Below, piece after piece: positions 16 to 36,962 of a stretch of 36,962 bases of DNA (position 1 is its first letter; each line of letters begins with the position of its first letter). Made by a program: the position numbers and the translations under genes. The stretch is from Turicibacter sp. (GTDB lineage: Bacteria; Bacillota; Bacilli; MOL361; Turicibacteraceae), in contig JAUMTV010000013.1 in NCBI GenBank assembly GCA_030531025.1, positions 1 to 36,962 on the forward strand. Direction: 5' to 3'. The notes beneath the pieces are model-generated. The model was not told the origin of the DNA, did not search any database, and was given only the letters and a program-made list of their open reading frames with translations.

Positions 16-696
16 GTTTTTTTATGTGTCGCACTTAATATTACAATCTGTCAAAACAAAAAAGAAACATTAAAAAAGGACTTAAAAGTAATACCCGAAA
101 ACGAACTGAAAGAAATCAAAAAAGCGATCCAAAACACTCGTTACTACATTCCTTATATTATCGCTCTTCATACAGGTGCAAGACGCGGAGAAATACTAGG
201 GCTCACTTGGGAAGATGTAGATTTTGAAAATAATAGAATAAGTATCAATAAAGAACTACAATATCAAAAAAATGTTGGACTAGTATTGGTTGGAACAAAA
301 ACTAAATCTAGTATTCGCGATTTCAAAATGACAAATCGTCTGACACAAGAACTGAAAAGTCATTATTTAAATTTTCAAACATCCAAAGAATATTACGGAA
401 GTTTATATCACCAAGAATACAATTTCATTTGTTGCAATGAAGATGGTACCCCTATTCATCCAACACGATTTTCAACATTCTTTATTAATTTATTCAAAAG
501 ATTAGGATATAAATATAGTTTCCATGATCTACGTCATACGCACGCGACTATGTTACATGAAGCTGGTGCAAACTTAAAAGTCATTCAAGAACGATTAGGT
601 CATAGTGATATTAGAACTACGATGAATATTTATAGTCATATGACAACGACATTGGAGGATGAGGCGGTTGATAAATTCAATAAAAAATTCAACTAA
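16..696 (+). pseudogene. Tyrosine recombinase/integrase, catalytic domain only (integrase 1)
   Basis: This is the C-terminal catalytic domain of a phage/ICE-type tyrosine recombinase, which cuts and rejoins DNA at attachment sites. The frame is open from base 16, after a TGA at 13-15. It carries the full catalytic set: Arg in TGARRGE, the HDLRHTH box, GHS, and the nucleophile Tyr in NIYSH. The N-terminal arm-binding and core-binding domains of a usual 370-400 aa integrase are missing in this frame. The first in-frame ATG (286) lies past the catalytic Arg, so it is not a plausible native start. The gene is therefore either broken or continues in another frame beyond the window edge. It is about half identical to integrase 2 at 35.6-36.2 kb. 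It converges on efp, as integrases of elements inserted at gene 3' ends often do. Confidence 0.8.
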
Positions 697-854: not shown

Positions 855-1412
855 TTATCCGCGAGATACGTAACGTCCATCATTTGTATTGATGATTAAT
901 TTATCTCCAACTTCAACGAATAATGGCACTTGTAAAGAGTATCCAGTTGATACAGTTGCACTCTTAGTTGCATTTGATGCTGTATTTCCTTTTACTCCTG
1001 GTTCACATTCAACAACTTCTAACGTTACTTTTTCAGGAACTTCTACCCCTAAAATTTCGTTATTGAATGTATTGATTTTAACTTCCATTCCTTCTACTAA
1101 GAAGTTTTTCTCATATTCTAATTGAGCTACTGGGATTTCTAATTGTTCATATGTTTCATTGTTCATGAATACATATTCTTCACCCATTGAGTATAAGAAT
1201 TGCATTGTTGATTTTTCAATGTGAGCACGTTTAACTTTTTCACCTGCATTGAATGTATTATCAATAACAGCACCTGTACGTAAGTTACGTAATTTAGAAC
1301 GTACGAAAGCTTGTCCTTTACCTGGTTTTACGTGTTGGAATTCGATAACTTGGAATAAGTTCCCTTCATAATCAATCGTCATTCCTGTTTTAAAATCATT
1401 TGTAGAAATCAT
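855..1412 (-). CDS. efp: Elongation factor P
   Basis: EF-P enters the ribosomal E site and rescues ribosomes stalled on polyproline. At 185 aa it has the normal family length, with the KOW-like N-terminal domain followed by two OB-fold domains. The loop PGKGQAF places a lysine at residue 32, the position modified by 5-aminopentanolylation in Bacillus, and not the Arg of the EarP-modified type. The start is an ATG with a strong AAGGAGG site. A promoter lies about 90 bp upstream (TGGACA-N17-TATAAT). A rhodanese gene is divergent upstream, and efp and yqhL are also near each other in Bacillus. The 3' end faces integrase 1. Confidence 0.95.
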
Positions 1413-2117: not shown

Positions 2118-2225
2118 TTTTGGTTCTGTTTTAAGTAAAAGTTGATAATAGAAAATTTTTGCATAACTTACTTCATTTGGTGTAGTATAATAAACGTACA
2201 AACATTCGTTTAGGTGGTGAGTTTT

Positions 2226-3285
2226 ATGGCGAAAAAGAAGAAAACAATAAAAGAAAAAGTGTTAGCTCTAATTCCTAAGTTATCTGAAATAGAATTTGAG
2301 GAAGTAGCCCAATTCGTTGAGCTTAGTCATATTAATTTTCATTTAGATAATCTTCAAAGAGAGATAAAAGAAACACGTTATTCTGAAGGGCAATACACTT
2401 GTCCTTTTTGTCATAACACTCATATCGTAAAAAATGGAACTCAAAATGGAATTCAACGTTATTTATGCCGTCAATGTCGAAAGTCATTTAGCAATCAAAC
2501 CGCTACTCCTTCTTATCATTCTAAAAAATCCCCTAAGCTGTGGCTTCAATATCTTAAATGTATGTTATCGGGGTATACCATCCGTCAATGTGCTGAGGAG
2601 TGTCAAATAAATATTGCCACCTCCTTTTTCTAGCGACATAAGATTTTAGATGCATTAGCCACAGCTATCGGTGTTGGAGATTTAGAGGGACTGGTATGAT
2701 GAAACGTTTTTTAGATTTAATCGAAAAGGAAACTTTACAAAGGTTAGAAGCTATAAAAAAGGCGTTCGTACTTCAACTGGTCGAATACCTAAACAAGCTA
2801 AGAAAAAGAAACGTGGATTATCCTGTGACCAAGTTGCCGTTGGAACAGCTTTGGACCGTTTAGGTAATTTTAAAATGGGATTAATTTGTACAGGACGATT
2901 ACAGTACCCTGCTCTTAAACGATTTTATGAAGGACATATTTCAGAAAATTCCACTCTATGTACGGATAGTGCTCATGGATATGCTACCTTATCGGATGAA
3001 TTGAATCTTAATCATATTAAAATTGAATCAGGGAAAAGGAAGAAAGATATTTATCACATTCAGCATATTAATTCTCTTCATAGCCGATTAAAAGCTTTTA
3101 TGGGAGACTTTAAAGGTTTTGCGACTAAACATTTACAAAATTATCTTTATTGGTTCAAATTTATCGAAATCTTCAAGCCTGAACGAGAATCTATTAAGGT
3201 AGAAAAAGCTTATGTATTGTCTCAGGCTCATTACACGGATTGTTCCATTGAAGCGATTAAAAAAAGAGTACCTGCTTTTGTTTAA
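2226..3285 (+). pseudogene. IS1595-family transposase, disrupted by a nonsense codon and a frameshift
   Basis: The N-terminal part has a zinc ribbon (two CxxC pairs, CPFC and CRQC, about residues 58-88 from the chosen start) and a helical linker. The C-terminal part has the ISXO2-like DDE domain: DETFF (first D), then CTDSAHGY. A TAG at 2631-2633 interrupts the frame where the sequence reads FF-stop-RHK. Family members have Trp here (FxWRHK), so this looks like TGG to TAG. A second lesion near 2690-2698, just before DETFF, moves the reading frame by +1. The catalytic residues beyond it remain, but no single protein can be made. The start is ATG 2226, 8 bp after AGGTGG; the earlier GTG overlaps that site. 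Confidence 0.85.
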
Positions 3286-22818: not shown

Positions 22819-22867
22819 CTCCTCTATGATATCATTTAGTTATCGATTACATTTTTGGAGGTACCTC

Positions 22868-24493
22868 ATGATTAAAAACTTTGATCAATTATCTTTAAAT
22901 CTATCTCAAGGACATCCGTTATACGATAAAATTATTCCTAAAAATCATCCGTTGCGATTAATTCAGGAATCCATTGATTTTTCTTTTGTGAATCCGTTAC
23001 TCGGCGCTAACTATTCCATTGATTATGGTAGACCTGCCTATTCTCCTAAAGTGATGTTTAAACTTTTATTTTTAAAACTCCTTTATAACTTATCGGATGA
23101 GCGTGTGATTCAGGAAGCTCAAGTCAATATGGCGTATCAATACTTTTTAAATTTAGAGCCAGAAGATTCATTAATGCATCCTTCCTTATTGACTAAATTC
23201 AGAAAATTAAGACTAAATGATGAAGAGATTTTAGAAGAACTCCTCCATAAAATCGTGAGCCAGGCGATTGAAAAAGGATGAATCAAATCTAAACCATTAA
23301 TCATGGATGCCACACATACTCGAAGGCAATATTCGGTTCAAACTCCAATTGAGATGTTAAGGAGCGTTTCAAAAACAATACGCAAACAGCTATACCGCTA
23401 TGCGCCAGAAGTCAAAGAGAAGGTTCCTCCTAAGTTACACGCCACGGCTTCACTCGAAGAAGAAGTCGCCTACACGCAAGAATTAATTCACTTTGCCACC
23501 GACTATATCGAGCAACATGCCAACATTAAACAGGCAACTAAGAAAGCTTTAACCGTCTTAAAAGATAAAGCTTATCAAAGCATTCTCTCGGTTTCAGAGT
23601 AAGAAGCTAAAAGGGGATATAAATCATCAACTGAATCATTTGTCGGTTATAAATCTCATCTTGCCATCACAGAAGTGCGAATCATTACAGCGGTTGAAGT
23701 CACAACGGGTGAAGTGAGTGATGGAAAATAGTTAGAGACCTTAGTCGAGAAGTCAAAAAACAATACCATTGGAGTTCAAGAAGTATTAGCTGATGCGGCG
23801 TATTCAAGTAAAGGTAATTTAGCGTATATGGAGAAAGAGAAGATCACAGCTGTAACCCCCTTAAACCCAATCGTGTCGAATGGGGTAAACAGAGAAGCAG
23901 ATGGATTTGAATATAATAAGGATGCCGGGCAAATGCGTTGCCCGGCTGGTCATTTAAGTGTCAGAAAAGCTCGAACAGGAAAGAAAACTCAGAATCAACG
24001 TTGGACTTACTACTTTATGATTGAAAGATGTCAAACGTGTCCATTAAGAGAAGGATGTTATAAATCTGGCGCGAAATCTAAGACGTATTCGATCACCATT
24101 AAATCTGATATTCATCAAAGAGCAATAGATTACCAAAAAACAGATGAATTCAAACAGAAGAAAAAGCAGCGTTATAAAATTGAAGCGAAAAACGCAGAAC
24201 TAAAACAGTCCCACGGATTTAAAACATGTAAATTCGCGGGACTTTTCGGCATGAAAATTCAAGACTATCTAACCGCATTCGTGGTCAATTCTAAACGAAT
24301 CGTGAGGTTAATCCAACTCAAAAAAGTAAAACTCAAGCAACAAGATCCAAAATTAATACAAATAATGAATATATTTAAGAATAAGAAAAAAGGAGCCTAT
24401 TATTTAAAAAATAATAAGCTCCTTTTTCAGTGGCCTCATTTAATTGGGCTCTTTTATCAATCTTTATTTAATATAAATGAAGCGTTTCAATAA
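22868..24493 (+). pseudogene. IS1182-family transposase with three in-frame stops
   Basis: A single reading frame covers the whole DDE transposase. The N-terminal DUF772-type domain (about residues 30-110) starts from the ATG at 22868, 7 bp after GGAGG. The catalytic region has MDATHT, GYKSHLAI and DAAYSS, and the C-terminal cysteine-rich part has CPAGH and CQTCPLREGCYKSG. The frame is cut by TGA (23279), TAA (23600) and TAG (23729) with no frameshift. TAG most simply reflects Gln CAG to TAG in DGKQLETL; the original residues at the other two are uncertain. The frame also runs past the element's right end to 24493, so the last residues are encoded by flanking DNA. Confidence 0.85.
24386..24427. 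terminator. Bidirectional hairpin at the right end of the IS1182-family element
   Basis: The stem AAAAAAGGAGC with GCTCCTTTTT, plus an inner ATTATT/AATAAT stem, could end the transposase transcript. On the minus strand it could also serve as the terminator of gluP, whose own flank was displaced. Confidence 0.75.
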
Positions 24494-27242: not shown

Positions 27243-27568
27243 TTATCTCACTACTCCTTTAGTATTCGTTTTATTTTGACATTTTAACATTATAACAAAC
27301 AATTCATTATTTGTATATAAGATTTACCTTTTGTGGTAAGCACTTCTTGGAACTTTCATCTGTTCATTGAGTCATTCCAATTCACTAGCCTTATCTCTAT
27401 TTTACTAGTTTTTGTCATAATAGTCATCTATGAAAATACTTTTTCGTCAGATAGTTGCCGTTAGTATCCATGTGTTCTCTCGCAGAAATTATACGTAACT
27501 CATTTTATATCAGAAACATTTTAGAAGTTTTTTCAAAATAGCTTTTATTATTTCATCATAAATTATAT
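27243..27568. other. Intergenic region lspA-csp without identified features
   Basis: I see no gene, repeat or convincing promoter here beyond a TATAAT-like box (about 27282-27287, minus strand) without a good -35 for lspA. Confidence 0.5.
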
Positions 27569-27599
27569 AAAAAAACCGCTGAATTTTCAGCGGCTTTTT
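27569..27599 (-). terminator. Terminator after the cold-shock gene
   Basis: A GC-rich stem CCGCTGAA with its complement, flanked by A- and T-runs, lies 18 bp downstream of the csp stop. Confidence 0.88.
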
Positions 27600-27617
27600 G
27601 ATTCATCATGATTTTAA

Positions 27618-27821
27618 TTATAAACTTTGTGGAACAACATTTTGAGCTTGGAATCCACGTGGTCCTTGTGTCGTCTCAAAAGTTACTTTTTGACCTTCTT
27701 CAAGACGCTTGAATCCGTCGGCTTGAATAGCTGAGAAGTGAACGAATACATCATTTCCATTTTCTGTAGAAATAAATCCAAATCCTTTTTCTTCATTAAA
27801 CCATTTTACTGTACCTTTCAT
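27618..27821 (-). CDS. Cold-shock protein (CspA/CspB family)
   Basis: This is a 67-aa single cold-shock domain, an OB-fold nucleic-acid chaperone that melts RNA structure at low temperature. RNP1 is KGFGFIS and RNP2 is VFVHFSAI. The start [17 protein letters not shown] is canonical, with ATG after AGGAGG. The transcript has a leader of about 140 nt from a consensus promoter, as is usual for cold-regulated csp genes. Which Csp paralogue it is cannot be told. Confidence 0.95.
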
Positions 27822-27968
27822 ATTGGTACCTCCTAAAATTTATTTCTGTAATGAAAGCAAAAAATTCACGCATTATTACAGATTACATTAAGTGGTGGAA
27901 TATAATCTCTAATAACATGTGAATTTCATGAAAGTTAAAAGCTATAAACAACTACTGAATATAATTCT

Positions 27969-27997
27969 ATTATATGCTACTTATTGAAAAATGTCAA
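27969..27997 (-). promoter_or_regulatory. Promoter of the cold-shock gene
   Basis: Perfect TTGACA (27997-27992) and TATAAT (27974-27969) are spaced by 17 bp on the minus strand. This gives an approximately 140-nt untranslated leader that probably takes part in cold-shock control. Confidence 0.88.
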
Positions 27998-28137
27998 TGA
28001 TAGTTGAGCCTTGCTTGTGCCCTTCTTTTGATGAACTAGACTTTTATCCCATCTAAAACGATCTACTCAATCTAAATCTTATCTTATTTTTCACCTCATA
28101 AGTAGATTATTTGATATATTTTATCATTTGTAATAAA

Positions 28138-28170
28138 AATTGCCATCCATTTTAATTAATGATGGCAATT
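28138..28170. repeat. Inverted motif AATTGCCATC-N13-GATGGCAATT without an integrase gene
   Basis: This is a third copy of the integrase-linked motif: 10-bp perfect arms and a 13-bp spacer. The bases just upstream (about 28119-28135, reading FDIFYHL-stop) resemble the C-terminus of integrase 2 (FDRFFE-stop). It may mark the end of a deleted integrase that once sat next to the comEB 3' end. Confidence 0.55.
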
Positions 28171-28244
28171 AAAAAGTTCATATTAACGTGTTAACGAGTT
28201 ATGATTATGAATAATAAAAAAGTGATATGATGAGCTAAATCAAT

Positions 28245-28376
28245 CTATTCTACTTGAGTTTCAACTGTTAATTTAACTTCTTTCATTTGGCGATACTTTA
28301 CTCCCGCTGCATCAAGCATTCGCTTTGAAGCAATCGTACTATCTGTCTGAGCATATTTATCACTCATGTAGATTAT
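28245..28376 (-). pseudogene. 3' fragment of the dCMP deaminase gene (comEB'), likely displaced attachment-site copy
   Basis: The minus strand encodes 41 residues from YMSDKYAQTDS to VETQVE-stop that match the C-terminus of the complete comEB at 36.3 kb with only three changes. Similarity begins abruptly at about 28373. Identical DNA blocks include 20 bp at 28351-28370 (matching 36433-36452) and 23 bp at 28297-28319 (matching 36379-36401). There is no start or N-terminal part. Such a leftover 3' end is what integration into the end of a gene leaves at the far side of an element. Confidence 0.9.
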
Positions 28377-28464
28377 TGGATATTTAAATATTAATCATAA
28401 TCTTTCTTAAATATCCCTATAAGTAGCGGGATATCAATGCTTTTTAAGAAATGATTATATAATT

Positions 28465-28492
28465 TTAACTCCTTATCTATCCTTACTATAAT
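28465..28492 (+). promoter_or_regulatory. Promoter of the 74-aa gene
   Basis: TTAACT (28465-28470) and TATAAT (28487-28492) have a 16-bp spacer. The inverted motif at 28502-28531 lies directly at the transcript start, so a protein bound there could repress this promoter. Confidence 0.55.
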
Positions 28493-28501
28493 ATATCTAA
28501 T

Positions 28502-28531
28502 TTTCCACCATTAGTGACAAGATGGTGGCAA
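28502..28531. repeat. Fourth copy of the integrase-linked motif: TTTCCACC-N14-GGTGGCAA
   Basis: One arm has a single mismatch to TTGCCACC, and the spacer is 14 instead of 13. It lies just inside the left end of the island, 126 bp from the comEB fragment. The copy at 36182-36210 lies 117 bp from the intact comEB stop, so both ends of the island carry it. Confidence 0.5.
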
Positions 28532-28556
28532 GTAAAAAAAATGGAGAGATACGATT

Positions 28557-28781
28557 ATGAATAACGATATTATTAACGATTGGTTAGAAACATACCAGCT
28601 CCCGCTACAAGAATTAGCGGTTAAATACAACGTCCCCTTAGGAGAGGTCGTAGAGATAACAGAGCTTTATTTATTGATTAATTGTATCATAGATGTGATG
28701 TATCTTTATAATCAGTTGGAATGGTATGGTAACAAAGAGTTGCAAAAAGAAATCAGCGATCTAGTTTGTGAGACATTTTAA
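28557..28781 (+). CDS. Small acidic protein of unknown function
   Basis: This 74-aa protein sits at the left end of the island. It is acidic and helical, with an LQELAVKYNVPLGEVVEI segment (residues 17-34) that could be a helix-turn-helix-like pair, although I cannot assign a family. The start is an ATG with GGAGAG 8 bp upstream, behind a recognisable promoter and in front of a terminator, so it is probably expressed. Its position next to an element end would suit an excision or control protein, but that is inference only. Confidence 0.6.
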   Translation: MNNDIINDWLETYQLPLQELAVKYNVPLGEVVEITELYLLINCIIDVMYLYNQLEWYGNKELQKEISDLVCETF

Positions 28782-28807
28782 ATAAAGCGTAGTCAAAATA
28801 AAACAAC

Positions 28808-28858
28808 AGATAGCGAGTAAAATAGTTCATTCTATTCTCACCATCTGTTGTTTTTTAA
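28808..28858 (+). terminator. Terminator after the 74-aa gene
   Basis: The outer stem AACAACAGAT/ATCTGTTGTT and an inner GAGTAAAATAG/CTATTCTC stem are followed by TTTTTT. Confidence 0.7.
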
Positions 28859-28960
28859 GTAGTCACCATCGACAAAACTAAATATCATCTGTAAATTCTA
28901 CTATAGATTGCGGCTTGTAGATAACTAACAATTTATTCCATATAATAAAGTCAAAAGTTA

Positions 28961-28992
28961 AAAAGATAGATAGACACTCCATCTATCTTTTT
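28961..28992 (-). terminator. Terminator of the DHFR-like gene
   Basis: Stem AAAAAGATAGAT with ATCTATCTTTTT overlaps the 3' end and stop codon of the reductase gene. Confidence 0.7.
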
Positions 28993-29519
28993 TTATGTTT
29001 ACTATACCTTAAAATCGTGATTCCAGATTCTACATAATACCCTTTTAACTTTAGGTTTATTGTTGGATTATTCTCTAAAAACAAAGGGCGTCCTGAACCT
29101 AAAATCGTTGGAATCACCCCTACAATATACTCATCAATACTGTCCGATTTAAGAAATGCATCAATCATTTGACCACCACCAAACAAGTAAATATCTTTCC
29201 CTTCTTTTTGCTTCTCTTCGATTAAAAGCTTAACAATATCTCCTTTGATAAAATGAATATTATCAAAATCTTCAAGTTCTTCTGAAGTTGCTACGAAAAC
29301 TTTTTTATTGGGATATTGTAAATGCATGTCTTGTTCATAACATCGTTTCCCCATTACCACTATATCTATGCTTTCTAAAAAGTCATCAAAGCTCCATTTT
29401 TGATCAGTATCTAATGTTGAATTTCCATCACCAACGATCCACTCATAACCGCCCGTTTCATCAGCAATATACCCATCCAAACTCATCGCTAAATTCAAAA
29501 TTATTTTTCTCTTCATCAT
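28983..29519 (-). CDS. Dihydrofolate reductase-family protein (RibD C-terminal-like)
   Basis: A 178-aa reductase-like protein of the DHFR/RibD-C superfamily, related to Bacillus YwjB/YyaP-type proteins. The N-terminus KIILNLAMSLDGYIAD is the family hallmark. VVMGKRCYEQ and the GGGQMIDAFLKSD nucleotide-binding loop follow, then PTILGSGRPLF. It probably binds NADPH, but the substrate is unknown, and it is not the housekeeping FolA. The start is one of two adjacent ATGs after AAAGGAG. It is a single-gene transcript inside the island, likely cargo. Confidence 0.85.
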   Translation of the reverse strand: MMKRKIILNLAMSLDGYIADETGGYEWIVGDGNSTLDTDQKWSFDDFLESIDIVVMGKRCYEQDMHLQYPNKKVFVATSEELEDFDNIHFIKGDIVKLLIEEKQKEGKDIYLFGGGQMIDAFLKSDSIDEYIVGVIPTILGSGRPLFLENNPTINLKLKGYYVESGITILRYSKHKKR

Positions 29520-29925
29520 AACATCTCCTTTCTAAGCTGTAGATTTATTATACTATAATTAAGGTGATATCCTATGTCATATTGCTCTCTTTGTAAGTTA
29601 ATCTTTATCGAGGACGAATTGTCAATACAAACGAGATAGTTTCTCATATACTTTTATTCTATTTTATTGCAAAATAATGATTAGTTAGTTCTCTAGCTCG
29701 ATTACCACCTTTCCTTTTGTGGGATATATTAGTTATTGAACAAACTTATACGGATATGTTATATTTCTTTTTGGGAAAATAAGAGAGATATTTCGAAGTT
29801 TCTCACATATACAACCTACTTAATACAGAGACTTTATGCCTCTTTTTCTATACGTATCGCTTGATAAATATTGTATTATTTTGTAGAATATGTATTGAGG
29901 TTTTTGCCTCTACAATCCCAAATTA
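29520..29925. other. AT-rich gene desert upstream of the DHFR-like gene
   Basis: I see no convincing gene here. Short GAG(G)-N-GCCTC inverted repeats occur near 29827-29845 and 29897-29910. The only longer open frame (29871 onward) crosses the hairpins at 29950-30032 and lacks a ribosome site. Confidence 0.4.
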
Positions 29926-29935
29926 TCAGTATAAT

Positions 29936-30032
29936 ACTTTTTCTTCGAGGCTACTGCTATTGCCTCGTTTATGCATCTAAAAAAGTCATCCCAATTAAAA
30001 AGCAACCAGTATTTTTACTCGGTTGCTTTTTT
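29936..30032 (+). ncRNA. Candidate small RNA with two hairpins
   Basis: A TATAAT at 29930-29935, with a poor -35, precedes about 90 nt. It holds a GAGGC/GCCTC hairpin (29947-29967) and a terminator-like hairpin AAAAGCAACC/GGTTGCTTTT (29999-30031) with a T-run. No ribosome site or good ORF fits. It could be a small regulatory RNA or the RNA partner of a type I toxin-antitoxin pair, but no toxin was recognised. Confidence 0.35.
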
Positions 30033-30110
30033 CAACTTTATTTATATAAAGGGCTATGTAATAAGTGTATTCGGTACAGAGTAGGAATACGCTTGGTAAA
30101 ATAAAAAAAA

Positions 30111-30136
30111 GATAGCTATTTCATTTCATAGCTACC
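30111..30136 (-). terminator. Terminator 3 of the tandem minus-strand units
   Basis: On the minus strand the stem GGTAGCTAT with ATAGCTATC is followed by eight T residues. Confidence 0.7.
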
Positions 30137-30190
30137 TTTCCGAATCCAAAGTGACCTTCAGCGTTTTGTAGAGTAAATATTAAACCTACC

Positions 30191-30391
30191 TTTATAATAT
30201 AACATTTTATGGCAAAAAAATCATAACAAAAAAGATAGCAAGTGAACTTAATCACCCGCTATCCTTTTCAAGAGCTTTTCTTTTTTTGTGAAGAGAACAT
30301 TAGAAATACTTCCATAATATAACATTTTTCAACAAACATTGCAAGACAAAAAAGGTAGCAAAGTGAACCTAATCACCTGCTACCTTTTTTA
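30191..30391 (-). repeat. Tandem promoter-terminator repeat, two units 120 bp apart
   Basis: The blocks 30191-30271 and 30311-30391 are diverged direct repeats. Each has an AATATAACATTT box (a TATATT on the minus strand), an A-rich spacer, then a terminator stem (GATAGC/GCTATC, or GGTAGC/GCTACC, enclosing GTGA/TCAC). On the minus strand each terminator is followed by a promoter-like box. The second has TTGCAA-N17-TATATT. Transcripts of about 80-90 nt would end at the next hairpin. Small RNAs are the inference. Confidence 0.5.
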
Positions 30392-30915
30392 TTATCTTCA
30401 TTTATCGAATCATATACGGCTTGTCTACGCTCTAAAGACATTCTTTCGTTAGATGTAGATTTTCGAGTTTTTGTTATCAAATACCATATATCATTCGTAC
30501 TCTTCACAAAACAACATAACGTAAAGATGATTGATATAGTTATAACAAACGGAATAAAATTCATCAGTAAGTTCGTCATGGCTGATGAACTGATAATCAC
30601 CAATAACGCTAAACACACTGAAACTATTCCTGCCCAAATCCCGAAAACTACGTTTAGGTACATCCTATCTACAATTGAAGTAGCCGATCATCTTTGCATT
30701 ATCTTTCCATCAGACATTCCCATGATAATCCCTAGCGCAGTAAACATAAACCCTGAAATAATAGCATTAAAGTTAATTACATTCCAGTAAAAATCATAAT
30801 TAGATTCATTCACCATAAATATACTATAATCAATAATATTTGTTTGTTTTAACAGAGTAGCAGTAAGCACAGATAAAAACATTGAAACCAATATATTTTT
30901 CCATTTTCTCCACAT
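30373..30915 (-). pseudogene. Four-helix membrane protein interrupted by an in-frame TGA
   Basis: Two open segments in the same frame (30915-30688 and 30687-30373) are separated only by a TGA at 30690-30688. Together they form one protein of about 180 aa. The predicted helices, in order, lie around NILVSMFLSVLTATLL, ISGFMFTALGIIMG, VFGIWAGIVSVCLALLVII and FIPFVITISIIFTLCCF, with a basic C-terminal tail. The ATG at 30915 follows AGGGAG by about 9 bp. It lies 38 bp behind the gene at 30954-31913, in the same operon. A toxic membrane effector paired with a soluble sensor is possible, and loss by nonsense would fit that, but no family was recognised. Reinitiation at the ATG at 30663 could still make the second half. 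Confidence 0.6.
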
Positions 30916-30953
30916 TAAAACAACTCCCTTTTCTATATTCAATTATATCTCAG

Positions 30954-31913
30954 TTATAACTTATTCGCTAATAAAATTAGTCTATCTTGATGCTTTTTAT
31001 ACTCAGTCTCCATCACCTCATAAACTTTTTCCCTGAAGCTTTCAGAATTATATAGGATTTGCCCTAATTCATTTATTTCAAAAGCTATTTTAACTTTAGC
31101 ATTAAACTGTTGTTCCACCAATCTATAATCTTGAGTTCTAGAGTTTATCGTCTTTCCTCCTATAGATAACCCTCTCATTAGTTTATTATCTTTGAATCTA
31201 TTTGACATACTATTTACAAAATCATTTATCTTTTCTTGTTCAAATATTAATGCCTTCTTATTTTTTACACTTCTTACCTGAATAGCAACCTCATACTCCT
31301 CATCTGTTGCTAATTGTTTAATCGCTTTATCAGGAACATTCAACTGCTCTAAATACCCTGCTTCAGGAATGATAAATTTATAAGAAAATTTAGAAATTTC
31401 AGAGCCGGGTGCTAATAACTCTTTAACATTCTCTGCTGAAACGATATTCAATAACTCCATCTCATATTCTTGAGTATACTGATTTACAATATTATTCAAT
31501 ATTATCGGTTGAGGTGCTGATTGCCCTGTGATAAAACCTATAATCCCATTTTTATAATCTAATAAAAAGTGCGTAAATATCTCTATACCGAATTGACCTT
31601 CTTGTTCTGGTTTCAAAATATCTTGATGTGTACAATCGGAATAGTTTCGTAAATGTATTTCTACTGTAGGTTTAATTTTCCCAACTCGAGCGAACAAGAA
31701 ATTTTCGTCATTTTTTAAAATATCCATAGTTGTGAAATGAGAACCACTAGATAACCGTAAACTGTTATTAATTGAAAAACTTGTAAAAACCTTATTAAAT
31801 ATAGTATAAATTCTATCATTAGCAGAAGTTTTGTCTGCACTATTCATAATATTTACAGAATAATAATAAATCATTCTATCTTTTTTCAATACTTTATTAG
31901 CTTTTTTACTCAT
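30954..31913 (-). CDS. Soluble protein of unknown family, partner of the membrane protein
   Basis: This 319-aa protein has no signal peptide or membrane segment. N-terminal landmarks are YYYSVNIMNS and FARVGKIKPTVEIHLRNYSD; the middle has HFLLDYKNGIIGFITGQSAP. A long helical C-terminus ends near ETEYKKHQDRLILL. I do not recognise a family. I chose the ATG at 31913, a few bases after GGAAAGGGATAGG; the ATG at 31943 has no ribosome site. It is directly followed by the four-helix membrane gene. Two-gene soluble-plus-membrane pairs on mobile islands are often anti-phage systems (Kiwa has such an architecture with the opposite order), but I see no diagnostic motif. Confidence 0.7.
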   Translation of the reverse strand: MSKKANKVLKKDRMIYYYSVNIMNSADKTSANDRIYTIFNKVFTSFSINNSLRLSSGSHFTTMDILKNDENFLFARVGKIKPTVEIHLRNYSDCTHQDILKPEQEGQFGIEIFTHFLLDYKNGIIGFITGQSAPQPIILNNIVNQYTQEYEMELLNIVSAENVKELLAPGSEISKFSYKFIIPEAGYLEQLNVPDKAIKQLATDEEYEVAIQVRSVKNKKALIFEQEKINDFVNSMSNRFKDNKLMRGLSIGGKTINSRTQDYRLVEQQFNAKVKIAFEINELGQILYNSESFREKVYEVMETEYKKHQDRLILLANKL

Positions 31914-32005
31914 CTCATTCCTATCCCTTTCCTTTATATTCATATCAGTCGAAGATTATACCCTATACTACTTTTTATTATAATTTCTTCAATATTTTAC
32001 AAAAC

Positions 32006-32047
32006 AAAAAGAGGTAGAAACAGAATTAACTGAATCTACCTCTTTTT
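32006..32047 (-). terminator. Terminator after the deaminase gene
   Basis: A 13-bp perfect stem AAAAAGAGGTAGA with its complement, flanked by T-runs, lies between the deaminase and the soluble-protein gene. Confidence 0.8.
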
Positions 32048-32205
32048 CACAAAGAACATCATGACATTTGATTTATTATATTATAAATTCCATTTTTCAG
32101 AAATAAATGGAGGGGGGATACAGTAAGTGAGGCTGAGAAATCATGATTAGAATAAAAAAATTCCTTCGTAATTAAGAGGCAAGATAAAGTAAAAAAGCTA
32201 CCTCG

Positions 32206-32700
32206 TTATTTACTATTCCAATATCCAATATGCGGCTTAACAATTTCTTTAGCTACCTCTTCATTTGCAATAGGCCCGATAATTTCAATAGGTTTTTGGC
32301 CTCTAGCAACAATTTCCCTACATGGCATATCAAAAGTTGGATTATCATCATCATTTCCTGTCAATTCCAAAAGCTTTTTCTCACTAATTCCATAAACTAT
32401 TCTTCCAACATTTCCCCAATAGATTGCTCCAGTACACATACAACATGGTTCTGCTGTTGAATATAAAGTACAATTCCATAAAAATTCTTTTGAATAAAGT
32501 TTTACAGCTTTTCTCATGGCTGTTGTTTCCGCATGTCCCGTACACTCTCTATCGGTAACTTCTATATTTCCAGATTCAATAATAATCTGCCCATCTTTAT
32601 CTACGATCAAGGCTCCAAAAGGATGATTTCCATTTGCTAGTGATTCATTAGCAATCTCAATGCATCTCTTAATATACTTAATATGATCCAAATCTTTCAC
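32206..32700 (-). CDS. Nucleoside/guanine deaminase-like protein (CDA superfamily)
   Basis: This 164-aa zinc-dependent deaminase is close to the GuaD/TadA branch of the cytidine deaminase fold. The catalytic HAE motif is in CTGHAETTAMRKA and the zinc cysteines are in AEPCCMCTGAIYW. HPFGALIVDKDGQII is typical of the branch. The C-terminal FDMPCREIVARGQKPIEI resembles guanine deaminases more than tRNA deaminases, but the substrate is not certain. The start is a GTG 8 bp after GGAGG. A candidate attenuator lies upstream. It is cargo of an island that is itself inserted in another CDA-fold gene, comEB. Confidence 0.85.
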   Translation of the reverse strand: MKDLDHIKYIKRCIEIANESLANGNHPFGALIVDKDGQIIIESGNIEVTDRECTGHAETTAMRKAVKLYSKEFLWNCTLYSTAEPCCMCTGAIYWGNVGRIVYGISEKKLLELTGNDDDNPTFDMPCREIVARGQKPIEIIGPIANEEVAKEIVKPHIGYWNSK

Positions 32701-32734
32701 AATATTTTCCTCCTAACACATTCATCGAATTTAA

Positions 32735-32860
32735 CAAAAAAAGTAGCCACATATTTGGGCTACCTTATAAATACTTGATTTTTTATACAATCAGCCCATA
32801 CAAGATGAGTAGCATATATATCTACCTAATGAGTCTCTTGCGGGCGCCATTGATACAAAT
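32735..32860 (-). promoter_or_regulatory. Candidate transcription attenuator or riboswitch upstream of the deaminase
   Basis: On the minus strand a bulged hairpin (32845-32794; GCCC/GGGC, CAAGA/TCTTG, GTAG/CTAC) is followed by a terminator (32763-32743; GTAGCC/GGCTAC, then seven T). The GGGCT at the 3' end of the first hairpin (32797-32793) can pair instead with AGCCC of the terminator (32761-32757). The two folds would then be mutually exclusive. A TATAAT (32867-32862) precedes it, with no good -35 at proper spacing. I do not recognise a known aptamer consensus. Confidence 0.5.
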
Positions 32861-33026
32861 CATTATATCTATTCTTTTGTCAACAACTATATTATATATT
32901 CTTTTTAATAAAAATCAATAGAATAAACAATATATCTGAAAAAACTCTATTTTAGACTATCTCAGCTTGTCCGAAACTTTGATATATCTGAAATCTTATA
33001 TAGAAAAATTTAATTGGAGATTTAAT

Positions 33027-33236
33027 ATGAGGACTGTAAGCAATAATAAAGAAGAGATTGAAACTATGCTAAATATCTTATTTAGAAGTCCTGTGAAAAC
33101 TAGAAGGCAACTAAAAAATAGTATTTCCTTATACGTTCTAAAAGCTCAAATATTCTATCGCAACGACCAACAGTTTAACAAAACTACTTCTAATAGGGTA
33201 ATACTGTTTAAAATTTTAGCCATTCAAAAGAAATAA
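33027..33236 (+). CDS. Hypothetical small basic protein
   Basis: This is a 69-aa open frame from an ATG that follows GGAG by 8 bp. The product is basic (PVKTRRQLKNSISLYVLKAQIFYRN) with no recognised motif. The region is very AT-rich and no terminator or clear promoter is visible, so it may be a degraded fragment or not a gene. Confidence 0.3.
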   Translation: MRTVSNNKEEIETMLNILFRSPVKTRRQLKNSISLYVLKAQIFYRNDQQFNKTTSNRVILFKILAIQKK

Positions 33237-33472
33237 TCGTAGTAAGTTTCTTTCAATCGTAGTAAATTAGTGGTAAATAATTTCTTTATTTTTCTAATAT
33301 ATATATAAACAGATAAGTTTTTCACATTATCAAGAGGACTTTTAAATCGACAAAAAGTTATCTAAAAGTTAAAAGGTATAGAAAACTAAGTATGCTTTAA
33401 ACTATGAATTACATTTCTGTTTATATATAGATAAAATCACTAAACATCTCACTCAAAAAAATATATCGCCAT

Positions 33473-34075
33473 GAAAAAAATCCTGTCTATATTTAATTTA
33501 GGTGTCGTTCCTAATGAAGTCAAAATTGGCTTGAATTATTTATTCCTTTAAAGGAAAAAAACTATCGGAAAATCTTTCGACACCTCTCCACTCACGTTAA
33601 TTTTACCGTCAGCTAATAATACAGATTGATCATACACTTTTAAATTTTTAATTATAGAAACTAATTATCCATCTTAAGGGCATCTGAAATTCTCGCTTTA
33701 TAGACCTTTCAATTACGACCTTTAGTTATAGCTAAACAATCACTGACAATAGAAATATGCGTGTCCTGTATCAATAAATCCTAATAATTCTAAATCAGAA
33801 TTATTCAATCGACGCAAATTTGCGCTCATTACGTAACTTTAATGATTTTGTCGTGGGATTTTCACTCACCACAATTTCGTGGTCAGTTATTTATATTTAA
33901 TTGTATGAGAAGCATACAATTGAAACTCAGATTTCAAAGATATTGACAGCTAAAATTTGTTATCGGTATCACCGATATGTTTTTTACAGCTCAAAATTGA
34001 GCCGTTTATTTCAGTTGCATCCCCCTCATTTTTGAGAAAACCTACAGTTGTTTATCATAAAACAACGCTGTGTTA
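33473..34075 (-). ncRNA. Candidate large structured RNA (~600 nt) in a gene desert
   Basis: No ORF is credible here, but perfect hairpins follow one another. AATAATTCT/AGAATTATT lies at 33783-33805, CGCAAATTTGCG at 33813-33824, ACCAC/GTGGT at 33868-33883, and AATTGTATG/CATACAATT at 33899-33921. TATCGGT/ACCGATA lies at 33961-33977, an 8-bp stem at 33987-34004, and GTTGTTT/AAACAAC at 34047-34066. AGGTGTCG (33500-33507) pairs with CGACACCT (33578-33585) at longer range. The stem at 33987-34004 gains a G-U pair only if read from the minus strand, which favours that strand. The boundaries are estimates. Confidence 0.5.
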
Positions 34076-34127
34076 AATAAAAATATTGTTAAAATATAAA
34101 AAAGAAACTACAAACTAATAAAATGTA

Positions 34128-34171
34128 CCCTAGAGAGTAGACAAAGAAAAAAGTCTACCCTCTAGGGTTTT
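34128..34171 (+). terminator. Hairpin at the left end of the IS150-like element
   Basis: A stem of about 15 bp (CCCTAGAG-AGTAGAC with GTCTAC-CCTCTAGGG) plus TTTTTT overlaps the left inverted repeat. It should block outside transcription from entering the transposase. Confidence 0.8.
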
Positions 34172-34211
34172 TTGATAGAATAGAAAGTATATAGTTTTTG
34201 GAGGATTAAAA

Positions 34212-34583
34212 ATGAGCAAGAAGTTATTTACATCAGAAGAAATTGAACAGTTAAAACAAAATACCTGTGTTAAATCAGTGTCTGAAAAAGGCATTACGTA
34301 TACAAAAGAATTCAAAGAAAATTTTATTAAGATGAGTGAGAAAGGTCATTTGCCTAGAGAAATATTTGAGGTTCATGGATTTGATCTCTCAGTTCTTGGC
34401 ATGTCTCGTGTGGCATCAGCGGCTAAACGTTGGAGACGCGCCTATAAAACACAAGGGGCTTTAGGATTAGATGATGCACGTACGAAATACTCAGGACGAC
34501 CGATTCAGCGTGAGTTAACATTAGAAGAACAACTGCAACGCACGCAAGCCGAGTTAGAGATATTAAAGATGGAAAATGAATGA
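34212..34583 (+). CDS. IS150-like transposase OrfA (helix-turn-helix subunit), probably shortened
   Basis: This 123-aa DNA-binding subunit has an N-terminal helix-turn-helix (KEFKENFIKMSEKGHLPREIFEVHGF) and a C-terminal leucine-rich helix (LTLEEQLQRTQAELEILKMENE). The start is an ATG after GGAGG. A TGA at 34581-34583 ends it three bases before a classic A-AAA-AAG slippery heptamer (34586-34592), where this family normally shifts -1 to make the OrfAB transposase. Because the stop precedes the heptamer, the fusion should no longer form. Trp (TGG) in ENEWLKKL is a plausible original codon. Confidence 0.85.
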   Translation: MSKKLFTSEEIEQLKQNTCVKSVSEKGITYTKEFKENFIKMSEKGHLPREIFEVHGFDLSVLGMSRVASAAKRWRRAYKTQGALGLDDARTKYSGRPIQRELTLEEQLQRTQAELEILKMENE

Positions 34584-35536
34584 TTAAAAAAGTTGAGACT
34601 CATGAGAAAACTGCTCGAATAGTTTCACCCAGTTTAACGTTTCAAATCATTCACGAGATTGTTAAGCAATCACGGTTTAAACATTTAATTTCTTATTTAT
34701 GCGATAGTTGTGGTGTTTCACGTTCAGGATATTATCGCTATTTTTCGTCATGCGCAAAAGCAGCGCGATTAAAACGGCAACAAGAAGAAGAGACTCGTTT
34801 AGCGGCCATTAAACAAGCGATTAACTTCAAAAACCGTACCACTAAAGGGATTCGTCAAGTCGCAATGGTTCTACAGGGGGAGTTTAATCTGACATACAAT
34901 CTCAAACCCGTTCATCGCATCATGAGAAAATATCACTTACTTAGTCCTGTCTGACGTGCCAATCCTTATCGTAAAATCCCAAAAGCAACACATGAACATC
35001 GTATTTATTCAAATAAAGTTAATCGTGAATTTAAACGTTCAAAACCTAATAAGGTATTTTTAACAGACATTACCTATTTAAAGTATGGAAAGAATCGTAC
35101 CGCCTACTTATCAACCATTATAGATAGTGCGACAAATGAAGTGGTTGCGTCTCAGATTAGCGAAAATTTGAAAATTTATTTTGTTCTTCAAACGTTGGAT
35201 AAGCTACGTGAAAATCCTAATGTTCAATTAACTGAAACAAGTCTGATTCATTCAGATCAAGGAGTTCATTATAGTAGCCCACAATTTTCGACTAAATTGA
35301 AGGAATTAGGAATTCAACAATCGATGTCACGAAGAGGAAACTGTTGGGATAATACACCCCAAGAATCATTTTTCGGTCATTTAAAAGATGAAGCCAACAT
35401 CAAAAAACACCAAACATTTGAAGAATTAGCAGGAGAAATTTACGATTATATTTACTACTATAATCATTACAGATACCAATGGAATCTAAAAAAGCTGACT
35501 CCTGTAAAATTCAGGAATCAGCTACTAGCAGCATAG
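34580..35536 (+). pseudogene. IS150-like transposase OrfB, interrupted by TGA
   Basis: The rve-type integrase core has all three acidic residues: TDITYL (D), HSDQGVHY (D) and PQESFFGHLKDE (E). The N-terminal HTH_21-like region contains CGVSRSGYYRY. A TGA at 34952-34954 interrupts the frame at SPV-stop-RANPY, where CGA (Arg) to TGA is the simplest origin. The frame is otherwise open to 35534. The ATG at 34580 overlaps the orfA stop (ATGA), but normal expression would be by frameshifting from orfA. Confidence 0.87.
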
Positions 35537-35568
35537 GTTTTTTTTCTTTGTCCTTGACAAAGGGTACA

Positions 35569-36179
35569 GATTAATAAATTCCGAAGATCTAAACACTATT
35601 GAAGAGGAAGTTAACAACACACGTTACCAATTACCATTTCTTATCTCACTTCACACTGGGATGCGTAGAGGTGAAGTTTTAGGTTTAACATGGGACAATA
35701 TAGACTTTAATTCTAAACGAATAACGATAGAAAAGCAACTACAGCGCCAAGGAAATGGAACACTATTATTAGTATCTACTAAAACAGATTCTAGTATTAG
35801 GAAATTTAAAATGACATCATCATTGTATACTGCATTACAAAAGGCATCAGAGGACTTTAGAATAAATCAAGAACGCTATGGTGAATATTTCTATAAAGGC
35901 AATGATTTTGTATGTTGTAACGAAGATGGTAGCCCAATAAACCCACAATCCTTAAGCCTTTATTTTAGAAAGGTTAGTAAGCGATTAGATATTCCATTTA
36001 GTTTCCACGATTTGAGGCATACTCATGCAACAATGCTACTAGAAGCGGATGTTAATATGAAAGTAATCCAAGAGAGGCTTGGACATTCAAATATCAGTAC
36101 TACATTTAATGTCTATAGTCATTTGACAGATAAGATGGAAGATAAGACAATTGATAAATTTGATAGATTTTTCGAATAA
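35569..36179 (+). pseudogene. Tyrosine recombinase/integrase of the comEB island, 5' truncated by the IS150-like element (integrase 2)
   Basis: This is the catalytic domain of a tyrosine integrase: Arg in TGMRRGE, HDLRHTH, GHS and the Tyr of NVYSH, ending KFDRFFE. The frame is open back into the IS150-like element, and recognisable integrase sequence starts at the first base after it, so the N-terminal arm- and core-binding domains are lost. It points toward comEB and stops about 150 bp short of the comEB stop, the usual place for an integrase beside its attachment site. The island can probably no longer excise by itself. Confidence 0.88.
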
Positions 36180-36181
36180 AA

Positions 36182-36210
36182 TTGCCACCATTTTTAATTT
36201 ACGGTGGCAA
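36182..36210. repeat. Inverted motif TTGCCACC-N13-GGTGGCAA after integrase 2
   Basis: Perfect 8-bp arms and a 13-bp spacer start 2 bp after the integrase stop. An extra GTGGCA half-site lies at 36215-36220. The layout matches the copies at 698-728 and 28138-28170. Confidence 0.6.
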
Positions 36211-36326
36211 AATAGTGGCAGTTAATAAAAATTCTATTTATTATGCTTCTCAAATCTTCTTGTGTTTGATACTCATAAAAAGCAAATAAACACTGATACC
36301 CAAACACAACAAACACTCGAAAAACT

Positions 36327-36803
36327 CTATTCTACTTGGGTTTTAACAGTTAGGTGAACCTCTTTCATCTGACGATATTTTACTCCCGCTGCATCAAGCA
36401 TACGTTTTGAAGCGATGGTGCTATCGGTATGTGCATATTTATCACTCATGTAAATAATTTCTTCAATTCCTGATTGAATAATATATTTCGCACATTCATG
36501 ACATGGAAATAGTGACACATAGATACGACATTTTTTTAATCGCGTTGTACTATTTAAAATCGCATTTTGTTCTGCGTGAACGACGTATGGGTATTTTGTA
36601 TTCAAGAACTCCCCTTCACGTTCCCATGGGAATTCAACATCTGAACATCCATGTGGAAATCCATTATAACCAATTCCTACAATTCGATTATCTTCATTCA
36701 CAATACATGCACCAACTTGTGTTTGAGGATCCTTACTTCTCATCGCTGATAGTAATGAAATTCCCATAAAATATTCGTCCCAGCTTAAATAATTTTCACG
36801 CAT
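36327..36803 (-). CDS. comEB: Deoxycytidylate (dCMP) deaminase, ComEB family
   Basis: ComEB deaminates dCMP to dUMP for thymidylate synthesis. The zinc-binding CDA motifs are HAEQNAI and PCHECAKYI; the N-terminus WDEYFMGISLLSAMRSKDPQTQVGACIV and the insert GCSDVEFPWEREGEF are typical of dCMP deaminases. Length is 158 aa. The start is an ATG after AGGAGG. The last 44 codons are duplicated as the fragment at 28.25 kb, so this 3' end was probably supplied by the integrated island and keeps the gene functional. Compared with the fragment the tail differs at three residues. Confidence 0.93.
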   Translation of the reverse strand: MRENYLSWDEYFMGISLLSAMRSKDPQTQVGACIVNEDNRIVGIGYNGFPHGCSDVEFPWEREGEFLNTKYPYVVHAEQNAILNSTTRLKKCRIYVSLFPCHECAKYIIQSGIEEIIYMSDKYAHTDSTIASKRMLDAAGVKYRQMKEVHLTVKTQVE

Positions 36804-36962
36804 TTAACAATTCCTCCTGCATTACTATAATGATACCTCTTTAATTATAACTGATATTTAAAACATTTGCTTGAATTTCATCATTTTTCTTTAATTCAGA
36901 AATATGAATATATAAGTCCAGATAAATTTTCTTCATAGAAAATTTTTAAGCCCTAGTAGCGG

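What the first reader, a model, noticed from the sequence alone, without database searches (positions are those of the whole stretch)
28245..36803. An ~8-kb island inserted at the 3' end of comEB, leaving a displaced gene tail
The last 41 codons of comEB exist twice: as a fragment at 28.25 kb and in the full gene at 36.3 kb, with a 20-bp identical block at the edge of similarity and a tyrosine integrase beside the intact gene. This is the signature of an element that integrates into a protein gene and supplies a replacement 3' end. Here the replaced part is long (about 130 bp), and the cargo includes another CDA-fold deaminase. I know of no described family using comEB as its site.
Basis: partly seen in the sequence, partly recalled or inferred. 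Interest (0 to 1): 0.72.

Follow-up and report, generated by a model that had tools for sequence, protein, structure and literature searches.

The report
Grounded mobile island at comEB tail
A bacterium of the Turicibacter group carries an 8-kb mobile DNA island that once inserted into the end of the gene for a nucleotide-converting enzyme and supplied its own copy of that end so the enzyme stayed whole; the trick is known from other elements, this target gene was not found described, and the island has since lost half of its integrase.

Summary
The last 126 nt of comEB (41 codons plus stop) occur twice, 8,082 bp apart: as a displaced fragment (28245-28370) and as the end of the intact gene (36327-36452). 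Both share an exact 20-bp core at the inner edge.

Relatives settle which is which. All five Turicibacter genomes held have comEB without the island. A near-identical ComEB protein found elsewhere (P0126) ends with exactly the fragment's residues. So the fragment is the native tail, and the intact gene wears a tail brought by the element. The tails differ mostly at synonymous sites, so each diverged as a working gene end. Matching arm-like repeats lie near both island ends and nowhere else in the window.

Correction: the integrase is a remnant. It keeps only its catalytic part, abuts an IS3-type insertion, and its N-terminal part is missing, so the island looks unable to excise by itself.

The mechanism is a known kind (e14 replaces 165 bp of icd in E. 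coli). The target gene was not found described, but no second comEB insertion was found either: a new member of a known kind.

The parts
28245..28370 (-). Displaced native 3' end of comEB: 41 codons plus stop (stop at 28245-28247)
   Evidence: residues identical to the end of ComEB P0126; G005 DNA tail 113/126 identical
28351..28370 (-). 20-bp core, copy at the int-distal end of the island (attachment-site candidate)
   Evidence: exact repeat of 36433-36452
36433..36452 (-). 20-bp core, copy inside the intact comEB
36327..36803 (-). Intact comEB (deoxycytidylate deaminase family, 158 aa)
   Evidence: PF00383 E 1.3e-25; 94% aa identity to G002 and G005
36327..36452 (-). Replacement tail of comEB, most likely brought by the element
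   Evidence: three residues differ from P0126 in this stretch, the fragment has none; 14 of 18 nt differences to the fragment are synonymous
35574..36179 (+). C-terminal (catalytic) part of a tyrosine integrase, converging on comEB; N-terminal part absent from the window
   Evidence: PF00589; relatives of about 375 aa, best 56%; no N-terminal match in the window better than E 0.67
34119..35573 (+). IS3-type insertion sequence abutting the integrase break; its second reading frame is split in two by a stop codon
   Evidence: 98% to G005 C1:1428492-1429947; PF20310, PF13276; NCBIfam IS3 E 0.0023, below its cut-off; split frame from the ORFs 34580-34954 and 35141-35536, one frame
36203..36220 (+). 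Arm-type repeat pair (two GTGGCA-like units 11 bp apart) at the integrase end
   Evidence: pattern found only twice in the window, 0.04 expected; binding by the integrase is inference
28513..28530 (+). Arm-type repeat pair at the int-distal end
   Evidence: also upstream of the ORF74 homologue in G004
28557..28781 (+). ORF of 74 aa, no family; a close homologue in G002 and G004
28983..29519 (-). Cargo: RibD C-terminal / dihydrofolate-reductase-like protein, 178 aa
   Evidence: PF01872 E 3.9e-21
30373..30942 (-). Cargo: two small ORFs (96 and 84 aa) that look hydrophobic, perhaps one gene broken in two
   Evidence: no family; hydrophobicity by eye; that they were one gene is inference
30954..31943 (-). 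Cargo: orphan protein, 329 aa
   Evidence: 5 relatives found at E<=0.001, one of them 99% identical; no family, DUF6827 only at E 0.069
32206..32700 (-). Cargo: nucleoside or tRNA deaminase-like protein, 164 aa
   Evidence: PF00383 E 1e-22; TadA model E 3.3e-19, below its cut-off

Best explanation
The 8,082 bp between the two cores are an integrated genetic element of a Turicibacter-type bacterium. A tyrosine integrase recombined a 20-bp core on the element with the same sequence inside comEB (codons for YMSDKYA), 103 bp before the stop codon. The element's attachment site carried its own comEB-like 3' end next to the integrase gene, so integration gave comEB a new working tail and pushed the native tail to the far end. 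Shown: the repeat and core, empty sites in relatives, identity of the displaced tail's residues with the end of a near-identical ComEB, mostly synonymous divergence of the tails, matching arm-like repeats near both ends. Inferred: the crossover inside the core, the arm sites as integrase binding sites, and the former circular form. Later an IS3-type insertion and, most simply, an adjoining deletion removed the integrase's N-terminal part, so the island is probably fixed in place unless a related integrase helps in trans.
For: Repeat and core. Empty site in 5 of 5 genus genomes. Native tail: P0126 differs from the window protein at one residue before the core and three in the tail, and from the fragment at none. 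Selection: 18 differences in 123 nt of codons, 14 synonymous and 4 not; dN 0.042, dS 1.0; P 3e-7 for so few non-synonymous changes by site numbers alone. Similarity ends a few bases after the stop codon. Arm-like repeats: exactly 2 in the window at up to two mismatches, one near each end, 0.04 expected. Integrase relatives mostly have PF14659+PF14657+PF00589. Yardstick e14/icd: 165 bp, 153 identical, 11 codons differ, 2 change a residue.
Against: No second comEB insertion was found: 0 of 119 other comEB locus files have an integrase-like frame within 3 kb. At DNA level the test of which tail is native is weak: of 18 differing sites the relatives side with the fragment / the intact gene at 11/6 (G005), 9/5 (G002), 8/4 (UBA7094), 6/5 (G003) and 7/9 (G004); P 0.33 for G005, and the excess divergence of the intact tail over the gene body is borderline (P 0.053). 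P0126 is the representative of a cluster at 90% identity; its DNA and the tails of the other members were not seen. The integrase is a fragment, so its specificity cannot be read from it. The far-end arm-like pair also occurs in G004 upstream of the ORF74 homologue, and the integrase matches found in G004 lie elsewhere. The arm pattern was drawn from the two sites themselves.
Confidence: 0.91

Rival explanations
1. Segmental duplication: the 3' end of comEB was copied within the chromosome (for example by IS-mediated rearrangement) and the copy decayed; the integrase remnant is a bystander.
For: An IS and non-coding stretches with partial matches to other Turicibacter loci are present in the island.
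Against: A dead copy should gather non-synonymous changes, but 14 of 18 differences are synonymous (P 3e-7). The copy that would be called the duplicate has the native residues and the intact gene has the altered ones. Similarity stops just after the stop codon and at the core, as in an attachment site. A converging integrase end and matching arm repeats sit at the ends.
Confidence: 0.04
2. Homologous replacement: a related strain's comEB region with an island already in it was taken up, and the mosaic tail reflects a crossover between strains and not site-specific integration in this lineage.
For: The tails are diverged like those of different species (83% outside the core), and comEB bodies of species are 78-90% identical.
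Against: The displaced fragment next to csp has the native residues and the change of similarity falls at the core, which needs no second event. It would still require an integrated element in the donor.
Confidence: 0.04
3. The two ends belong to different elements: an older integrase remnant at comEB and an unrelated cargo block that came by IS or other means.
For: The ORF74 module is also found in a block 97.6% identical between G002 and G004, with the integrase matches of both genomes elsewhere; the stretch 33.0-34.1 kb has hardly any coding sequence.
Against: The arm-like repeat pair is shared between both ends, and the far end joins the core with its comEB tail directly. It would alter the story of the cargo, not that of the junctions.
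Confidence: 0.12

Closest known systems
e14 prophage in icd of Escherichia coli K-12
   Same: Insertion in the 3' part of a protein gene; a displaced gene end (icdC) lies at the other end of the element; long replaced part (165 bp) with mostly silent differences.
   Different: Different gene and host; e14 is annotated with an integrase gene of full length and phage genes; here the integrase is a remnant and no phage structural family was hit.
Streptococcal ICEs with tyrosine integrases in 3' ends of rplL, rpsI, lysS, rpmG, guaA (PMC4701971, passages read)
   Same: Tyrosine integrase, 3' end of a conserved housekeeping gene, flanking direct repeats (12-54 bp there).
   Different: That main text has 0 occurrences of comE or deaminase; here the exact repeat is 20 bp inside a longer diverged 126-bp stretch, and no conjugation family was hit.
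Tn916-type integrases of Turicibacter and Firmicutes phages
   Same: Best relatives mostly have PF14659+PF14657+PF00589; the 25 phage rows listed are 35-40% identical to the relative P0005.
   Different: The window protein keeps only PF00589. Integrases very close to that of Tn916 integrate with low specificity (PMC4701971, passage), whereas this site lies inside a gene whose tail is supplied.

Membership tests
Integrated elements that restore the 3' end of a protein gene (e14/icd type) | Two copies of the gene's 3' end flank the element, one in the intact gene and one displaced | tested here: met
Integrated elements that restore the 3' end of a protein gene (e14/icd type) | Relatives have an empty site with the gene uninterrupted | tested here: met
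   5 of 5 genus genomes
Integrated elements that restore the 3' end of a protein gene (e14/icd type) | Displaced end is the native one, supplied end keeps the protein | tested here: met
   residues of P0126; reading frame kept. The DNA-level test alone is inconclusive
Integrated elements that restore the 3' end of a protein gene (e14/icd type) | Integrase gene of the element next to one attachment site | tested here: met
   catalytic part only, about 150 bp from comEB
Integrated elements that restore the 3' end of a protein gene (e14/icd type) | Element can excise as a circle and rejoin the native gene | not testable with these tools
   no reads or strain; the broken integrase speaks against autonomous excision
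Integrative conjugative element | Relaxase, coupling protein and secretion genes | tested here: not met
   no such family among 9 island ORFs scanned with Pfam; other short ORFs were not scanned and deleted genes cannot be excluded
Prophage or phage satellite | Phage structural, packaging or replication genes | tested here: not met
   PHROGs hits of 8 island ORFs are integrase, transposase and nucleotide-metabolism families, plus two weak hits of unknown function; deleted genes cannot be excluded
Tn916-type integrase | N-terminal arm-binding domain, core-binding domain, catalytic domain | tested here: inconclusive
   catalytic domain only in the window; most relatives carry PF14657, PF14659 and PF00589; the roles of the first two domains are recalled

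The most novel reading that the evidence does not exclude
Turicibacter hosts a group of tyrosine integrases with several specificities for the ends of conserved genes (comEB here, the efp flank in this window and in UBA7094). The comEB type is a new specificity whose integration swaps the last 41 codons of a nucleotide-metabolism enzyme, leaving an altered C-terminus (three residues here), while its cargo brings a second deaminase and a reductase that may act on the same nucleotide pools.
Probability: 0.2. Interest if true: 0.5.

Novelty: new member of a known kind. Interest (0 to 1): 0.36.

Why it matters
It adds a likely new target, a dCMP deaminase gene, to the conserved protein genes whose 3' ends serve as docking sites for mobile elements, in a genus for which the listings showed no paper on its mobile elements by title. 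The pair of tails (native and supplied) is a clean record of how such elements keep their target gene working: silent differences accumulate while the protein hardly changes. If intact relatives turn up, the site would be a defined integration target in Turicibacter.

Tried and rejected
Duplication in place was rejected by the synonymous pattern and by P0126. The hairpin-like repeats at 28136 and 36178 (D5) were first taken for element ends; the one at 28136 sits where G002 and G005 have, by eye, a hairpin of their own after comEB, so it was read as the host's terminator. No tRNA or tmRNA gene was found in the window, and no Rfam family in 27500-36962. The structure prediction of the 329-aa cargo protein gave mean pLDDT 48 and was not used. 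The core as a degenerate pattern in viral contigs: 0 matches. ComEB in viral contigs: 6 loci; the 3 closest entered and have no integrase-like frame within 3 kb, the other 3 were not examined. Integrase loci: of 98 examined none carries comEB and one (L129) carries efp, but only 44 of the 98 hold more than 200 bp beyond the integrase. Of 15 of 395 class genomes with an integrase relative at E 1e-20 or better, comEB places were printed for 8: on another contig in 7, about 720 kb away in 1; the loci of these integrases with their flanks hold no comEB. Records of L112, L130 and L131 searched for comEB: 0 of 3, an empty answer that by itself shows nothing, as the tool says. Plasmids: no near match to 34000-36962.

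Literature: comEB with 'integrative' and 'integration site', 3 papers, none on the topic by title (listing); 'deoxycytidylate deaminase' with integrase, attL, genomic island, 268 papers holding 3 of the 4 terms, 20 listed, that enzyme in none of the 20 (listing); 'dCMP deaminase' with attB, prophage, integrated, 0 papers; comEB with prophage and integrase, 11 papers, 10 listed, comEB passages read in two, both in accounts of competence genes, the other listed ones not opened; 'elongation factor P' with 'tyrosine integrase', 0 papers; Turicibacter searches gave listings only. Mageeney et al. 2020 on precisely mapped islands is not held. That comEB is undescribed as a site rests on these searches only. 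Further paper searches on e14 and on mapped islands served the comparison.
Full report
Host and frame. The window is most likely the whole of a contig: its integrase protein (P0001) is listed with one contig, of 36,962 bases. The closest ComEB locus in the species-representative genomes is Turicibacter sp. UBA7094 (84% aa), and the five genomes of that genus held here carry comEB at 82-94% aa identity. No genome is held for the window. The names csp, lspA and efp are recalled from the look of the proteins.

The observation. The end of comEB is present twice. The largest direct repeat in 27.5-36.96 kb is 134 nt at 85% identity, 8,082 bp apart. Its inner edge is an exact 20-bp block at 28351-28370 and 36433-36452, with no other place on the + strand of the window reaching 15 of 20 matches. 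From there to the stop codon both copies are 126 nt long and in frame. Upstream of the block the fragment departs from comEB; downstream of the stop codon the two copies part within a few bases. This is more than chance and has the shape of two attachment sites.

Empty sites. In UBA7094 comEB is followed by lspA. Blast of the region against L091-L094 shows comEB beside lspA (G002, G003, G004) or beside csp and lspA (G005) without the island. G005 has the window's gene order without the 8,082 bp. A ComEB protein search of the five genomes, with all first-look candidates scored, finds in each one comEB and one distant deaminase and no second tail. A blast of the whole island finds a comEB tail only at each native comEB, though there only 40 of 58-142 candidates per genome were scored. 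So 5 of 5 lack the island and no second tail was seen.

Which tail is native. DNA comparison alone is suggestive but not significant. After the core the fragment is 87.7% and the intact gene 83.0% identical to G005. Of 18 differing sites the relatives side with the fragment / the intact gene at 11/6 (G005), 9/5 (G002), 8/4 (UBA7094), 6/5 (G003) and 7/9 (G004); tests give P 0.33 for G005 and 0.053 for excess divergence of the intact tail over the gene body. The protein database gave the clear answer. P0126, the top hit to ComEB and representative of a cluster of 176 sequences on 18 contigs, differs from the window protein by one residue before the core and three residues after it, and its last 41 residues are identical to the translation of the displaced fragment. 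The fragment therefore has the native tail and the intact gene's tail is the foreign one. The tails of the other cluster members were not seen.

How the tails diverged. Between the two tails there are 18 nucleotide differences in 41 codons: 14 synonymous and 4 non-synonymous (three residues). dN is about 0.042 and dS about 1.0. If changes fell by site numbers alone, so few non-synonymous ones would have a probability of 3e-7. Both tails thus diverged while they were ends of working genes, which speaks against a local copy that decayed and for a tail carried by an element that resides in comEB. As a yardstick, e14 in E. coli K-12 shows the same picture: icd and the displaced icdC share 153 of 165 bases, 11 codons differ and 2 change a residue.

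The integrase. The frame 35661-36179 is the catalytic domain of a tyrosine recombinase (PF00589; PHROGs integrase family phrog_1, E 1.2e-46). Its full-length relatives are about 375 aa long, mostly with PF14659 and PF14657 before it; the best outside the window is 56% identical, and named ones include Turicibacter proteins. Alignments of eight relatives begin at residue 165-173, and their first 170 residues find nothing better than E 0.67 in the window. An IS at about 34119-35573, 98% identical to a copy in G005, abuts the break. Left of the IS there is no integrase sequence, so an IS insertion followed by a deletion is the simplest account. The element cannot be expected to excise by its own enzyme.

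Arm-like sites. A pair of GTGGCA-type units 11 bp apart occurs at 36203-36220, just after the integrase gene, and at 28513-28530, near the other end; allowing two mismatches these are the only matches in the window, with 0.04 expected in shuffles. The pattern was drawn from these two sites, so the figure measures their rarity and mutual likeness, not an independent prediction. The far-end pair also occurs upstream of the ORF74 homologue in G004. That they bind the integrase is inference from the general layout of lambda-type integrases (own knowledge).

Cargo. A RibD_C/dihydrofolate-reductase-like protein, a deaminase of the PF00383 family, two small ORFs that look hydrophobic, and a 329-aa orphan protein with 5 relatives found. 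One of these relatives (P0124) and one integrase relative (P0055) are both listed with a longest contig of 37,980 bp and the same sources, which suggests, without proving, that cargo and integrase travel together. No conjugation and no phage structural family was hit among the island ORFs scanned (9 with Pfam; 8 with PHROGs), so the class of the original element stays open.

Search for further cases. Among 119 other comEB locus files (at most 113 distinct places by my count; 116 of the 120 files, window included, hold at least 500 bp beyond comEB) none has an integrase-like frame within 3 kb. Of 395 class genomes 15 have an integrase relative at E 1e-20 or better; for the 8 with a printed comEB place it is on another contig in 7 and about 720 kb away in 1. 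Hence this is one documented insertion, not a documented family at comEB.

Novelty. Insertion into the 3' end of housekeeping genes is established: Streptococcus ICEs in rplL, rpsI, lysS, rpmG, guaA with repeats of 12-54 bp (PMC4701971, passages); e14 in the isocitrate dehydrogenase gene and Gifsy-1 in lepA without loss of gene function (PMC4632033, passages). Protein-coding sequences host 43.4% of about 1.75 million mapped islands (PMC12424338, whole text). comEB was not found named as a site in the searches made, but the main catalogue paper could not be read. I therefore file it as a new member of a known kind.

Noticed in passing
window 52-696 (+) with efp at 855-1412 (-): A second integrase C-terminal fragment, 98% identical to residues 164-377 of P0013, converges on efp; UBA7094 has an integrase remnant at the same place (L095, L129). 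By eye the flank after efp is alike in G005 and carries the same TTTGCCATCC repeat there, but G002 lacks that flank. The efp flank looks like a recurrent site in the genus.
   Followed up: partly
window 52 and about 35574: Both integrases of the window are cut at nearly the same residue (about 164 and 165-173 of 375), one by the IS3-type element, the other beside DNA that is repeated in G004 and of unproven type. Coincidence or a preferred target in the linker is open.
   Followed up: no
window 33285-33444: Imperfect palindrome (arms 57 nt) that matches 24 places in G002, G004 and G005: a multi-copy, MITE-like repeat. In three of these cases the two halves lie about 1.15 kb apart, as if they were the ends of a full insertion sequence.
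   Followed up: no
L221 7746-12483 and L222 6270-10993: A 4.7-kb block 97.6% identical between two species whose neighbouring stretch is about 71-72% identical, containing the ORF74 homologue and, in L221, the arm-like repeat: probably a recently transferred segment.
   Followed up: partly
window 17-52: 36 bases at the start of the contig are identical to L221 7509-7544, so the contig may end inside a repeated element.
   Followed up: no
window 30954-31943: Orphan 329-aa protein with 5 relatives found, followed by two small ORFs; PADLOC gave no hit. A gene group of unknown role.
   Followed up: partly
window 2214-3285 and 22826-24493: Two further loci that look like transposases split into several frames, besides the IS3-type element. 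That they are transposases is recalled from the look of the proteins, not from a family search.
   Followed up: no
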